A DNA stretch of 64,000 nt, taken from positions 3,615,304 through 3,679,303 of the forward strand of contig KB906767.1 of assembly GCA_000381625.1 (NCBI GenBank), in the 5' to 3' direction. The stretch comes from Bryobacterales bacterium KBS 96 (GTDB lineage: Bacteria; Acidobacteriota; Terriglobia; Bryobacterales; Bryobacteraceae). A program made the position numbers and the translations under genes. Positions 22,049-24,674 of the stretch are shown here, one piece after another (within the stretch, counting starts at the first letter, position 1; every line of letters starts with the position of its first letter). The notes beneath the pieces are model-generated. The model did no database searches. It worked only from the letters and a program-made list of their open reading frames with translations, and was not told the DNA's origin.

Positions 22049-22846
22049 TTAATGACTGTGAATCACAGCTTTTCGCGTGCCCGCTAGAGTCGATAACAGA
22101 GACTCACGCGGCATGTTTTTGATGATCGGCTGAACGGCCCATCCAAGCCCAAGCGGAACAGTGCGCGAGAGCGAGAGCGTGCGGCATTCCGCGTATACGC
22201 CATCGGGCGCTTGCTCCAGGCTCCAATAAGCCGTAAAGCGCCACAGGAATCCGTGTCCTTGTCCGGGAGGCAGTTCGCGTTCCGTTGCCGTACCCGGATC
22301 CTCAATTTCCGAGACCTTCGTCGAGGCGGACTCTCCATGCCAATCGCCAGGCTTGTCCTGCGAATAGCGAGCGGTAACGTCGGCATCGAGAACAACCGTG
22401 ATAGCGCTCTTCTTGCGCAATCGCCAACGACCTCGAACCATATTGCCGCTGCGTTCAACGGTTCGAGACGCGATGACTTCCGGGTAGTACTCTTTATGCT
22501 TGTTGAAATCCTCGAGGACGTTGACTACCTGCTCAACTTTTGCGCCCGGCACGAACATCGCGCCGAGCCAGTCGTACACCAGACCGTCCGGCACGGAAAC
22601 GCTGCCGTCATCCGACATAGGGAGTACGACAGACTGCCCTCCGTGCGCCGATTTCTTTTCTTGTGCATGCTCGTCGAGCCACAGGTAAGATCGGCGTCCC
22701 TGCCAGCGCTGTTGTAATTCGGCGCGCACTTTGGCATCGTATTGCTCAAAGGCGGAATTAGCCTTCGGACTCAAGGTCGTCATCAATTGCGCGTAGCAAG
22801 GAATAGAGCAAAGAACTGTAGCGGCGATTGAAAGGCGGCGAATCAA
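22049..22846 (-). CDS. exported SRPBCC/START-like protein of unknown function
   Basis: A 265-residue protein with a signal peptide (MIRRLSIAATVLCSIPCYAQ). The mature part resembles the polyketide-cyclase/START helix-grip fold: VPDGLVYDWLGAMFVPGAKVEQVVNVLEDF near residue 90, followed by YYPEVIASRTVERSGN and beta strands, then a C-terminal helix (PRESLLSTLAGTRKAV). Such folds bind hydrophobic ligands. It starts 31 bases after the ilvN stop on the same strand and could be read through from it, though a functional link is not obvious. Confidence 0.7.
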   Translation of the reverse strand: MIRRLSIAATVLCSIPCYAQLMTTLSPKANSAFEQYDAKVRAELQQRWQGRRSYLWLDEHAQEKKSAHGGQSVVLPMSDDGSVSVPDGLVYDWLGAMFVPGAKVEQVVNVLEDFNKHKEYYPEVIASRTVERSGNMVRGRWRLRKKSAITVVLDADVTARYSQDKPGDWHGESASTKVSEIEDPGTATERELPPGQGHGFLWRFTAYWSLEQAPDGVYAECRTLSLSRTVPLGLGWAVQPIIKNMPRESLLSTLAGTRKAVIHSH

Positions 22847-22877: not shown

Positions 22878-23360
22878 TCAGGAAACAAGCGCCACCAGGC
22901 CCGAGCGCACCAGCTCCAAAGTTCCGTAACGGCTCAGACGCGATGCGAATTCATCCATCGTTGACGGACACGCGGCAGCTTGCAGTTCGAGCCCGGCCTG
23001 AGCGGGGCCGGCGATGCGCGCGCCGAAATCGTGAGCGACCTGCATGGCGGCGGCCGCGCTCTCGCGATTAAACGCGTGCAGTCTCGCCAGCACCATTTCC
23101 TGGGCGAGCACGGGTTGGCCGGTGACATCCACCGCCGAAACAATGGGGATCAACTTATTCAATCTGGCGATGACGCGCGCACAAGCCTTTGGGTCGGCGC
23201 CGGTTTCAAACACGACTGTTGCTCTGGTGAGCAACGGATCTTCACATGGCGCCGCGGTCAGACTGACGATGTTGTAACCAAGACCGCCGAGGACCCCAAC
23301 CACCCGCGCGAGGGCGCCGGGTTTGTTTTCAAGCAATAGTGACACAGTCTGCGTATTCAT
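22878..23360 (-). CDS. ilvN: acetolactate synthase small (regulatory) subunit
   Basis: A 160-residue protein with the ACT domain at the N terminus (VSLLLENKPGALARVVGVLGGLGYNI), the site where valine binds in the family, followed by the C-terminal domain that contacts the catalytic subunit. It regulates acetolactate synthase, the first step to valine, leucine and isoleucine. The ATG at 23360 is chosen because the ACT domain starts there and AGGAAG lies 10 bases upstream. No ilvB or ilvC is nearby. A leader peptide and terminator upstream suggest its own attenuation control. Confidence 0.9.
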   Translation of the reverse strand: MNTQTVSLLLENKPGALARVVGVLGGLGYNIVSLTAAPCEDPLLTRATVVFETGADPKACARVIARLNKLIPIVSAVDVTGQPVLAQEMVLARLHAFNRESAAAAMQVAHDFGARIAGPAQAGLELQAAACPSTMDEFASRLSRYGTLELVRSGLVALVS

Positions 23361-23388
23361 CGACCGCGCTTCCTTTTGCGATCCGCCC

Positions 23389-23431
23389 AAAAGAAAAGCC
23401 ACCTGGCGGATCGTTATTACCCGCCGGTGGC
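23389..23431 (-). terminator. attenuator terminator of ilvN
   Basis: On the minus strand GCCACCGGCGG pairs with CCGCCAGGTGGC (one bulged base), loop of 11, followed at once by TTTTCTTTT. It lies between the leader peptide stop (23462) and ilvN (23360), the position of an attenuator terminator. Confidence 0.85.
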
Positions 23432-23512
23432 TTACCGGTTCCGAACTACGCAACCGGATGGTCAGACGGGCGCCGCGATAATAATCGCGGCGTTTTGAAT
23501 GACGATCCGGTT
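23432..23512 (-). promoter_or_regulatory. alternative leader hairpins of the ilvN attenuator
   Basis: AACCGGAT (23505-23512) can pair with ATCCGGTT (23452-23459), enclosing a perfect 9-bp hairpin CGCCGCGAT/ATCGCGGCG that covers the Ile-Ile-Ile codons of the leader. The CCGGTT of the second arm can instead pair with a following AACCGG at 23433-23441, close to the 5' arm of the terminator. These are the 1:2 and 2:3 pairings expected of an attenuator. Confidence 0.65.
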
Positions 23513-23521
23513 AAGGGACAT
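23462..23521 (-). CDS. branched-chain amino acid leader peptide
   Basis: A 19-codon frame reads MSLNRIVIQNAAIIIAAPV and stops. Seven of its 19 residues are Ile or Val, with three Ile codons in a row, the hallmark of ilv leader peptides. It starts about 30 bases downstream of a good promoter, ends 31 bases before a strong terminator hairpin, and precedes ilvN. Ribosome stalling at Ile/Val codons when charged tRNA is scarce would favour the antiterminator and allow ilvN expression. The ribosome site (GGCGAG, about 9 bases upstream) is modest. Confidence 0.82.
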   Translation of the reverse strand: MSLNRIVIQNAAIIIAAPV

Positions 23522-23548
23522 AAATTTATCTCGCCGAAGCGAAATTTG

Positions 23549-23577
23549 AAGATACAACGTCCGCGCGCATTACGCAA
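23549..23577 (-). promoter_or_regulatory. promoter of the ilvN leader
   Basis: On the minus strand TTGCGT (23572-23577) and TATCTT (23549-23554) are separated by exactly 17 bases, about 27 bases upstream of the leader peptide start. Confidence 0.55.
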
Positions 23578-23660: not shown

Positions 23661-24674
23661 TCAGCGGAAATGATAAAGCAGAATGCCGTATCCCACGCCC
23701 GCCTGGTCGGCGGGATGTGCCACCTGAAACGCCATGAACCGGCCATCGGTGGATACTACCGGATTTGACGATTTGTATCCTTCGTAGTCGTTGAAATGAG
23801 TCAGGCGCTGGAAATTCTTGCCCGTGCCGTCGAGCCGCAGTTTCCAGATATCGATATTGCCGGCGCCATGCTTTCCGCCCAGCGTATTCACCTGGCGATC
23901 CCCTTCGACATTTGTATAGAGCCCGTCAGGATAGATGCCCTCGCACTCGTTGTATGTGCCTGGAGCTTTTGACATATTCTCCACATCCCTATTCTGGAGA
24001 TCGATGGTCATGACCGATGCCAGCCCCTTGGGTTCATAGCAAGTAAAGGTCATTTTCCGGTCGTTGTCGAAGAAATCCTGCGCTTCGATCACACAATCCT
24101 TGGAGCGGCTTTCATACACCACGTGCTTGTTCGTCAGTTGCGCCGAATCACCCGACACATCCACGTCGGCCACATACAACTGCGACTGCTCCGGCGCAAG
24201 CGAAGGATCCTGAGCGTGTGTCACCGAGTATGAAATCTTCAGCGTCTTTTTCGAAATTGCGGCGCCTTCCGACATCTTCTGGCCGAGACTCAGTGGTTTG
24301 GACCCCGTTTTTCTGCTCAGATACCAAAGTTCGTTGTCGCGCGAACGGCTGCTGTGGATGTCGCTAAAGCGGGCGGGGCCGATCAAGATGTAGTCTCCGG
24401 AAACCAGGTGCATCACCCGTAAAAACGCCGCTCCCGGCACATTGCACGTAAGGCACCGGATGATACGCGTGCGCAAATCAATCACGAAGGCATCGCCGAA
24501 GCTCTTGCCCATAAACGCGATTCGCTGGTTATCGGGCGAGATATCGGCGCGCTCACCGAAATGAGTCAAAATTTCGATGTTCGCCGGCAAATGATCGAGC
24601 GGATTGCCGGATTTTCGCTGCGCGAGAAGCGGGAGAGATAACAGAAGGCTGAAGGCCAAGTACTTTGAACGCAT
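23661..24674 (-). CDS. exported TolB-like beta-propeller protein
   Basis: A 337-residue protein with a signal peptide (MRSKYLAFSLLLSLPLLAQ). The mature part carries WD40-like/PD40 strand motifs typical of TolB-type propellers, for example GERADISPDNQRIAFMGK near residue 40 and SSNPVVSTDGRFMAFQVAH near 310. It has Cys pairs (RCLTCNV). It lies 20 bases after the small membrane protein and TonB-like genes on the same strand, so it may be part of an envelope-energising group. Its substrate is unknown. Confidence 0.72.
   Translation of the reverse strand: MRSKYLAFSLLLSLPLLAQRKSGNPLDHLPANIEILTHFGERADISPDNQRIAFMGKSFGDAFVIDLRTRIIRCLTCNVPGAAFLRVMHLVSGDYILIGPARFSDIHSSRSRDNELWYLSRKTGSKPLSLGQKMSEGAAISKKTLKISYSVTHAQDPSLAPEQSQLYVADVDVSGDSAQLTNKHVVYESRSKDCVIEAQDFFDNDRKMTFTCYEPKGLASVMTIDLQNRDVENMSKAPGTYNECEGIYPDGLYTNVEGDRQVNTLGGKHGAGNIDIWKLRLDGTGKNFQRLTHFNDYEGYKSSNPVVSTDGRFMAFQVAHPADQAGVGYGILLYHFR

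What the first reader, a model, noticed from the sequence alone, without database searches (positions are those of the whole stretch)
23389..23577. Complete transcription attenuator with a leader peptide (MSLNRIVIQNAAIIIAAPV) in front of ilvN
Seen: on the minus strand a promoter (TTGCGT, 17 bases, TATCTT), a 19-residue peptide with four Ile/Val near its start plus III and a terminal Val, three alternative pairings (AACCGGAT/ATCCGGTT, CCGGTT/AACCGG, and the terminator GCCACCGGCGG/CCGCCAGGTGGC with a U-run), then ilvN. Known: such attenuators control ilv operons in enteric bacteria and some actinobacteria. Inference: ilvN here is controlled by charged Ile and Val tRNA. Attenuators of this kind are, as far as I know, rarely described in Acidobacteria.
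Basis: partly seen in the sequence, partly recalled or inferred. Interest (0 to 1): 0.75.

Follow-up and report, generated by a model that had tools for sequence, protein, structure and literature searches.

The report
Isoleucine-sensing attenuator before lone ilvN
A short stretch in front of a solitary acetolactate-synthase regulatory gene in a soil acidobacterium looks like a switch that lets the gene be read only when isoleucine (perhaps also valine) runs short; a similar switch is predicted before the main branched-chain amino acid genes in nearly all sampled genomes of its family, but none of it has been tested in cells.

Summary
In detail: a 19-codon leader ORF (23521..23462, minus), a terminator (23432..23397 plus U-tract) and an ilvN behind it. 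With an antiterminator criterion, it is the only hit in the 64 kb.

CCGGTT/AACCGG does not exclude the terminator; GCCCGUC, in the last leader codons, with GGCGGGU of the terminator's 5' arm does. That helix covaries over 60 attenuators. In silico it forms for stalls at codons 2-14, not from codon 15 to the stop, nor without a ribosome.

The gene is a stand-alone small-subunit paralog, not the operon ilvN. The genome has three such attenuators: before ilvBNC (Val-rich), before cimA (Ile, no Val) and here (Ile-rich). Before ilvB, 52 of 54 family regions examined pass the leader-plus-terminator test. A model of it gave one weak hit outside the family in 297 phylum genomes. Rfam has no matching family.

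It is classical ribosome-mediated attenuation in a lineage for which my searches found no report, with an unusual target. No transcript evidence exists.

The parts
23549..23577 (-). Promoter-like site TTGCGT-17-TATCTT
   Evidence: Sequence; 7 of 12 consensus matches, not listed by the scan; promoter + 5' UTR 94.7% identical in G001 against 71% just upstream. Weak.
23528..23545 (-). Small 5' UTR hairpin ATTTCGCTTCGGCGAGAT before the leader ATG; role unknown
   Evidence: Listed by the terminator-like scan; identical in G001.
23462..23521 (-). Leader ORF MSLNRIVIQNAAIIIAAPV*, 19 codons
   Evidence: G001 MSFNRIVIRNAAIIIAAPV, 57 of 60 bases identical.
23498..23506 (-). Regulatory codons 6-8, Ile-Val-Ile
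   Evidence: Stalls here leave the antiterminator in nascent RNA, P 0.90, 0.98, 0.88.
23477..23485 (-). Regulatory codons 13-15, ATT ATT ATC (Ile-Ile-Ile)
   Evidence: GATTATTATCG in 6 of 6 leaders of A4, always four codons before the stop; the three g5 leaders found later have Ile-Ile-Met-Ile or Ile-His-Met-Ile there. Antiterminator P 0.98, 0.65, 0 for stalls at codons 13, 14, 15.
23472..23491 (-). Hairpin GCCGCGAU-UAUU-AUCGCGGC holding the Ile codons; candidate pause hairpin (inference)
   Evidence: Both-side changes at 3 of 8 pairs in six sequences; covariation 0.342 vs 0.173 shuffled, 1 of 500, but the count of changed pairs is not beyond shuffles (153 of 500).
23505..23512 (-). Protector 5' strand AACCGGAT, pairs with 23459..23452 when no ribosome is present
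   Evidence: Predicted fold; without a ribosome antiterminator P is 0.09.
23452..23459 (-). Protector 3' strand ATCCGGTT
23465..23471 (-). Antiterminator 5' strand GCCCGUC, in the last leader codons
   Evidence: Seven pairs (two G-U) with 23425..23419; homologous helix covaries over 60 sequences.
23419..23425 (-). Antiterminator 3' strand GGCGGGU, in the terminator's 5' arm
23435..23457 (-).
   Evidence: Predicted folds of nascent RNA; 28 of 29 bases of 23461..23433 identical in G001.
23389..23432 (-). Intrinsic terminator AGCCACCGGCGGG-N-CCGCCAGGTGGCT plus U-tract
   Evidence: -24.4 kcal/mol; homologous helix covaries, 0.329 vs 0.201 shuffled, 0 of 500. Not listed by the simple scan.
22878..23360 (-). 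Regulated gene: stand-alone acetolactate synthase small-subunit paralog (called ilvN2 here), 160 aa
   Evidence: TIGR00119 89.8 bits, cut-off 56.9; NF008864 102.2 bits, below its 119; PF10369 and PF22629 above cut-off; ACT tree places it with other lone copies.

Best explanation
It is a ribosome-mediated transcription attenuator. RNA polymerase transcribes the leader while a ribosome translates the 19-codon peptide. If charged Ile-tRNA (or Val-tRNA) is scarce, the ribosome stalls at codons 6-8 or 13-14. GCCCGUC at the end of the ORF stays free, pairs with GGCGGGU of the emerging terminator 5' arm, the terminator is blocked, and ilvN2 is transcribed. If Ile and Val are plentiful, the ribosome runs on, covers GCCCGUC, the terminator forms and transcription stops near 23389. 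Without translation, AACCGGAT/ATCCGGTT keeps the antiterminator from forming. Shown here: the parts, their conservation and covariation, and the predicted folding logic. Inferred: stalling, termination and read-through in the cell, the kinetic choice, and the physiological role (more of a second AHAS small subunit when isoleucine is short).
For: Only place in the window with all three parts; 3 of 1000 shuffles. Leader conserved in G001. Similar attenuators precede ilvB: 58 of 74 upstream regions pass the leader-plus-terminator test (52 of 54 in the family), 56 with at least 6 antiterminator pairs, against 0-1 of 74 in each of ten shuffles. Terminator helix 91.1% paired, covariation 0/500. Antiterminator helix 86.4% paired, both-side changes at 5 of 7 pairs, 0/500. 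Real partners pair better than swapped ones, 0 of 5000 permutations. In L043 the motif stands behind a shifted stop codon, so it is kept as RNA rather than peptide. Stalls at codons 2-14 give the antiterminator (P 0.65-0.98), codon 15 to the stop 0; with footprints of 10 or 16 bases the boundary moves one codon either way. Ile/(Ile+Val) averages 0.81 in 13 leaders before cimA or lone ilvN genes and 0.47 in 51 ilvB leaders, p 7e-8; p 9e-6 with eight values from seven genera.
Against: No transcript or reporter data. The promoter is weak, and a better consensus match lies inside the leader ORF. At equilibrium the full-length window RNA always prefers the terminator (P 0.99-1.00), so the switch must be kinetic. 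The window's antiterminator duplex is among the weaker (-13.1 against a mean of -19.6 kcal/mol) and no better than with swapped partners (-14.4). The last Ile (codon 15) and Val19 lie outside the responsive stretch. The protector is not general: without a ribosome the cimA and G231 ilvB leaders form the antiterminator (0.91, 0.93). For the antiterminator helix a slide of +1 gives as many both-side changes (6 pairs, 14 cells) though only 64% pairing. Shuffle and swap controls do not allow for relatedness. The ribosome footprint is assumed. A3 was made from sequences picked for a leader and T-run.
Confidence: 0.85

Rival explanations
1. A plain intrinsic terminator of the upstream gene (337-aa ORF ending at 23661) with a chance Ile/Val ORF in front of it.
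For: The terminator lies about 230-270 bases behind that gene's stop on the same strand. R1 also matches ordinary terminators, such as those before TPR-repeat genes.
Against: Leader ORF, antiterminator and protector are all present; the arrangement precedes ilvB in 52 of 54 family regions and cimA in five genomes; chance 3 of 1000.
Confidence: 0.05
2. A ligand-binding riboswitch or protein-binding leader with the same terminator, the short ORF being incidental.
For: The region between stop codon and terminator is structured, and ilvB leaders of some bacteria are ppGpp riboswitches (PMC10272879, passages).
Against: No Rfam family matches. Between stop codon and terminator the sequence is poorly conserved across genera, whereas Ile/Val codons and the ORF-end pairing are kept. 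Codon content follows the downstream gene.
Confidence: 0.05
3. The leader controls translation or Rho-dependent termination rather than intrinsic termination.
For: In several genomes of genus g26 (sister family) an Ile/Val peptide ending VAVACPG* or VAVACLG* is kept without a T-run terminator, so this lineage may use another output there.
Against: The window has a strong terminator with a U-tract, conserved in G001, and ilvN2 has its own GGAAG upstream of the ATG, outside the hairpins.
Confidence: 0.05

Closest known systems
ilvL / ivbL attenuators of enterobacterial ilvGMEDA and ilvBN (recalled, not searched)
   Same: Leader peptide rich in Ile/Val/Leu; terminator or antiterminator chosen by ribosome position.
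   Different: Other sequences and operons; here the first gene behind the attenuator is a solitary small-subunit paralog, and one antiterminator strand lies in the last codons of the leader ORF.
ilvB-II motif (uORF) of Corynebacterium ilvBNC (PMC10272879, passages)
   Same: Short BCAA-rich uORF, terminator, predicted antiterminator, reporter response to rich vs minimal medium.
   Different: That paper reports one copy per genome, before ilvB; here R1 finds three in one genome, before ilvBNC, cimA and a lone ilvN paralog. No Rfam match.
Leader peptides before ilvB in Actinobacteria (PMC1262725, passages)
   Same: Short ORFs with Ile/Val/Leu codons and terminators before ilvB.
   Different: There the ORFs are said to overlap the terminators and the mode is called unclear; here an antiterminator is supported by covariation.
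ilvB-OMG and Leptospira ilvB motifs (PMC10272879 and PMC8632094, passages)
   Same: BCAA-rich uORFs before ilvB.
   Different: Leptospira or mixed phyla; an E <= 1 Rfam search of ten loci gave no such match, though I did not check that both motifs are in Rfam.

Membership tests
Classical ribosome-mediated transcription attenuator | Short leader ORF with regulatory codons for the pathway's amino acids | tested here: met
   5 Ile and 2 Val of 19 codons; conserved in G001.
Classical ribosome-mediated transcription attenuator | Intrinsic terminator between leader ORF and gene | tested here: met
   -24.4 kcal/mol hairpin and TTTTCTTTT; homologous helix covaries.
Classical ribosome-mediated transcription attenuator | Antiterminator that shares bases with the terminator | tested here: met
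   GCCCGUC/GGCGGGU; homologous helix covaries 0/500, swap test 0/5000. The window copy is weak.
Classical ribosome-mediated transcription attenuator | Ribosome position decides which hairpin forms | tested here: inconclusive
   In silico yes in nascent RNA; at full length the window terminator always wins at equilibrium; no experiment.
Classical ribosome-mediated transcription attenuator | Expression rises on starvation for the coded amino acid | not testable with these tools
   Needs a reporter or RNA-seq.
Known Rfam leader families (Rfam 15) | Match at gathering score, or E <= 1 | tested here: not met
   Window: only two tRNAs. Ten loci at E <= 1, window leader included as L217: two irrelevant weak hits.
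Acetolactate synthase small subunit (IlvN) | TIGR00119 above cut-off, ACT plus C-terminal domain | tested here: met
   89.8 bits vs 56.9; PF10369 and PF22629 above cut-off; NF008864 102.2 is below its 119.
Acetolactate synthase small subunit (IlvN) | Gene paired with a large-subunit gene | tested here: not met
   No ilvB among the neighbouring ORFs as read; the one ilvB at E <= 1e-200 lies elsewhere with its own ilvN.

The most novel reading that the evidence does not exclude
A subunit-swap circuit: the Ile-dominated attenuator makes a second AHAS regulatory subunit only when isoleucine is short. IlvN2 then replaces IlvN on the single IlvB and loosens valine feedback or shifts substrate use, so isoleucine can be made while valine is plentiful. 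In some relatives the same leader class drives a lone ACT-type small-subunit gene followed by ilvA. Where the ilvBNC-cimA operon broke up in this genus, each piece carries its own attenuator, whose Ile/Val codons match its branch.
Probability: 0.3. Interest if true: 0.75.

Novelty: new member of a known kind. Interest (0 to 1): 0.55.

Why it matters
It extends leader-peptide attenuation of branched-chain amino acid genes to the Bryobacteraceae and relatives, soil Acidobacteriota. [quoted passage not shown] It offers a natural experiment: after an operon split, leader codons look specialised, Val for ilvBNC and Ile for cimA and ilvN2. It also suggests a testable role for stand-alone AHAS small subunits; a study of AHAS evolution describes the two subunits as coded by a pair of linked genes (PMC5727371, passages).

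Tried and rejected
The first alignment with G001 compared opposite strands and was redone. The first leader table left minus-strand loci unturned and was redone. I first took the window attenuator for a recent copy of the genome's own ilvB leader; the lone-ilvN clade and the Ile-run leader shared with four other genera speak against that, but the likeness of MSLNRIV to MNLSRIV of the ilvB leader is unexplained. R1 matches in G002, G166 and G182 (terminators before TPR-repeat genes) and G013 (apparently inside a coding region) were set aside after reading them; weak R1 matches in G258, G265, G267, G270, G106:C442 and G027:C247 were not read.

MAFFT places the antiterminator of the sister family one column off, so undercounts it; the swap test does not use columns. 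In one search the script picked another overlapping ORF in L046.

Literature, what I saw: searches for attenuators in Acidobacteria gave no paper on this element; two of the papers listed (PMC2965389, PMC4833913) were seen as passages, the second giving only leader-gene statistics that include Acidobacteria. The cimA search listed one paper, not opened; the small-subunit search listed five, one seen as passages. Searches were wider listings. Most subscription journals are not held; Lopatovskaya et al. 2010 was seen only as a reference.

Rows dropped: 3 of 77 ilvB matches cut by a contig start (G004, G243, G255). Of 74 upstream regions, 58 entered A3: I excluded 15 by hand for lack of a leader or T-run, and the T-run pattern lost L062. 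R1 later matched some excluded ones (G028, G029, G035, G253), so the exclusions were not all true absences. L077 fails but is in A3. A second, weaker cimA match of G231 was left out. In one search the leaders of G007 and G249 were read by eye; G249's would fail the threshold. Of the three new g5 leaders only G134's entered that statistic.

Full report
What is there. The window is G000:C1:3615304-3679303. The one close relative of its ilvN found in the named genome collection is in a Bryobacteraceae MAG, on a contig of the same length as G001's, so I take family f1 to be Bryobacteraceae (Acidobacteriota, Terriglobia, Bryobacterales). On the minus strand, between a 337-aa ORF ending at 23661 and an ilvN at 23360..22878, lie a promoter-like site, a 19-codon ORF, several hairpins and a U-tract. 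The predicted fold of 176 bases is -76.7 kcal/mol, z -6.2, 0 of 200 shuffles as good. Five places in the 64 kb have an I/L/V-rich short ORF plus a terminator; only this one also has an antiterminator of at least 6 pairs. In 1000 shuffles of the region 8 have the first two and 3 all three. The promoter is 7 of 12 and was not returned by the scan, which listed a 9-of-12 site inside the leader ORF (23505..23478), 1 found against 0.9 expected. The simple terminator scan did not list this terminator, whose stem has a bulge.

Conservation. The gene and leader occur also in G001, of the same genus. Identity is 95% in the leader ORF, 97% in the spacer, 91% in the terminator, 95% in promoter plus 5' UTR, 88% in ilvN with 79% at third positions, and 71% upstream of the promoter. 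The leader is kept at least as well as the coding sequence.

The gene. It scores as an acetolactate synthase small subunit (TIGR00119 89.8 bits, cut-off 56.9), but below the cut-off of NF008864. Matches at E <= 1e-35 occur in 2 of 237 family genomes, both of this genus. The other ilvN of the genome, 43% identical, lies at C1:2870408 in ilvB-ilvN-ilvC. One ilvB was found at E <= 1e-200. An ACT-domain tree of 82 columns groups the window protein and its G001 ortholog with seven other lone copies, support 0.89, apart from 29 other ilvN of operon type; branches in the lone clade are long, above all G003's, so attraction of long branches is possible, and I did not check each of the 29 for a neighbouring ilvB. 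All 29 have Asn in the ENK motif; six of nine lone copies have Asp, but the window protein keeps Asn. That this residue bears on valine binding is recalled, not tested.

A family of attenuators. Upstream of the operon ilvB in the same genome is a second attenuator: MNLSRIVVALFVVVVVGTA*, a terminator GGGCCACCGGGCGGG...GCCAGCGGGTGGCCC and TTTTCATTTT. I took 74 ilvB upstream regions (77 of 101 genomes matched, 3 were cut off). Of these, 58 of 74 pass the leader-plus-terminator test, 52 of 54 in the family, against 0 or 1 of 74 in ten shuffles; 56 also have at least 6 antiterminator pairs. In the family the leaders end mostly in Ile/Val codons and Gly-Pro-Ala-stop.

Why Gly-Pro-Ala. The codons read GGCCCCGCC; CCCCGCC pairs with GGCGGGG in the terminator 5' arm. 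In the sister family (L091-L094, L098) the peptide ends Ser-Pro-Gly (CCCCGG) and the terminator has CCGGGG. L040 has UUCGCC with GGCGAA, L068 CCCCU with AGGGG. In L043 the stop codon lies ahead of the motif, yet CCCCGC remains. On 60 aligned sequences the helix is 86.4% paired, 5 of 7 pairs change on both sides, covariation 0.137 against 0.091 in shuffles, 0 of 500; a slide of +1 gives as many both-side changes (6 pairs, 14 cells) but 64% pairing and covariation 0.105. Swapping partners between genomes changes the summed energy from -1178 to a mean of -1052 (sd 14.5), 0 of 5000 as good. Neither control allows for relatedness. The terminator helix has covariation 0.329 against 0.201, 0 of 500, and at most 0.165 when slid. 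The window's own duplex, GCCCGUC/GGCGGGU, is -13.1 kcal/mol, weaker than the mean of -19.6 and than its swapped mean of -14.4.

How the window switch should work. I folded nascent RNA, up to the terminator 3' arm, from the edge of a ribosome assumed to cover 13 bases counted from the first base of the A-site codon. Antiterminator probability is 0.09 without a ribosome. It is 0.88-0.98 for stalls at codons 2-13, which include I6, V7, I8 and I13, 0.65 at I14 and 0 from I15 to the stop; with a footprint of 10 or 16 bases the boundary shifts by one codon (the 0.92 for codon 14 averages only the pairs present). Once the window terminator is complete it wins at equilibrium in every state tested, so the choice has to be kinetic (inference). 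The protector is not general: without a ribosome the cimA leader and a typical ilvB leader (G231) form the antiterminator, 0.91 and 0.93, and in G231 it can win even at full length.

Third copy and operon split. A covariance model of the 60 sequences (R1) finds three sites in the genome, besides a weak antisense match to one of them: ilvB leader 1.2e-14, C1:203916 at 1.2e-13, and the window at 6.7e-12. The new site has the leader MLTFLSIGIIIGAGITSPA* and precedes cimA (TIGR00977, 695 bits), citramalate synthase of the isoleucine route. Of 51 genomes with both genes placed, 48 have cimA 1.6-2.8 kb behind ilvB on the same strand; the exceptions are G000, G001 and G027, the last possibly by contig ends. 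In this genus the operon is split and each piece has an attenuator. G075, G074 and G079 (genus g33) also have Ile-rich leaders before cimA-like genes; I found none before the ilvB of G075.

Lone ilvN leaders. Leaders before lone small-subunit genes in G015, G007, G249 and G121 share GATTATTATCG with the window and G001, exactly four codons before the stop. The Ile codons sit in a hairpin with both-side changes at three of eight pairs among six sequences; covariation is reached in 1 of 500 shuffles, the number of changed pairs in 153 of 500. A model of these six (R2) hit 11 of 237 family genomes at E <= 0.001: the six, three new ones in genus g5 (Ile-Ile-Met-Ile or Ile-His-Met-Ile, again four codons before the stop), where leader, a 75-aa small-subunit gene and an ilvA-like gene follow each other, and two cimA leaders. 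An ilvA follows also in G015 and G121. G000 has no close match to that ilvA (38% over residues 2-312). G003 has a lone gene with an ilvB-like leader; G175 a lone gene whose leader looks decayed.

Codon content. Ile/(Ile+Val) in the last 18 residues averages 0.81 for 13 leaders of cimA or lone ilvN genes and 0.47 for 51 ilvB leaders of other genera (Mann-Whitney p 7e-8; eight values from seven genera, p 9e-6). The ilvB leaders of this genus have 1 Ile and 6-7 Val; among the 51 others two have at most 1 Ile and two have at least 7 Val, so this is extreme but not unique.

Extent. R1 hits 71 of 101 relatives at E <= 0.01; five of these have only weak or terminator-only hits (G166, G258, G265, G267, G270). 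In 297 phylum genomes at E <= 1e-5 it hits 4: G000, two of the same family, and G542, a weak hit before a gene that reads like pheA. The large searches use strict filters, so weak relatives may be missed.

Literature. Full-text searches found leader-peptide attenuators before ilvB in Corynebacterium and other Actinobacteria (PMC10272879, PMC1262725; passages), but no report for Acidobacteria or cimA. Enterobacterial ilvL and ivbL are recalled. I file the element as a new member of a known kind: classical attenuation, in a sequence family that Rfam does not match, with a stand-alone regulatory subunit as target.

Confidence. Attenuator: 0.85. Isoleucine as main signal: about 0.7. Subunit swap: 0.3.

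Noticed in passing
L096, L097, L100, L108, L109 (ilvB upstream, genus g26 of family f3): The Ile/Val leader peptide (..SLIIPVAVACPG* or CLG*) is kept but no T-run terminator follows; the output may be translational or Rho-dependent.
   Followed up: partly
L226 (G542:C9, another family of the phylum): Val-rich short ORF (VGVVVVVTVVRPTG*) and a terminator stand before a gene that reads like pheA (prephenate dehydratase, by eye); odd codon choice for that pathway.
   Followed up: no
L146:1762-3311, L160:1501-2933, L218-L220: Class-3 leader, short ACT-only small-subunit gene and ilvA in a row, in genera g15 and g5.
   Followed up: partly
window 22049-22846 (-): A 265-aa gene with weak similarity to Polyketide_cyc2 (below cut-off) follows ilvN2 closely (TTG start 3 bases behind the stop in G001, L033) and may share its transcript.
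   Followed up: no
window 23380-23388 (-): GGGCGGATC just after the U-tract is complementary to GATCCGCC of the terminator 3' arm, and GGCGGATC is kept in G001; a possible further alternative pairing.
   Followed up: no
window 23478-23505 (-): Promoter-like TCGTCA-16-TATTAT (9 of 12) inside the leader ORF; at chance frequency, but if used it would bypass the leader peptide.
   Followed up: no
window 23528-23545 (-): Small hairpin in the 5' UTR before the leader ATG, identical in G001; might affect leader translation.
   Followed up: no
L043 (G172 ilvB leader): Stop codon lies before the CCCCGC antiterminator strand, so the motif is kept outside the ORF.
   Followed up: partly
L154 (G175:C473): Lone small-subunit gene whose leader (MILLTQRIGISKASAMNVARAA*) lacks the Ile run and shows no clear terminator; looks like a decayed attenuator.
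   Followed up: no
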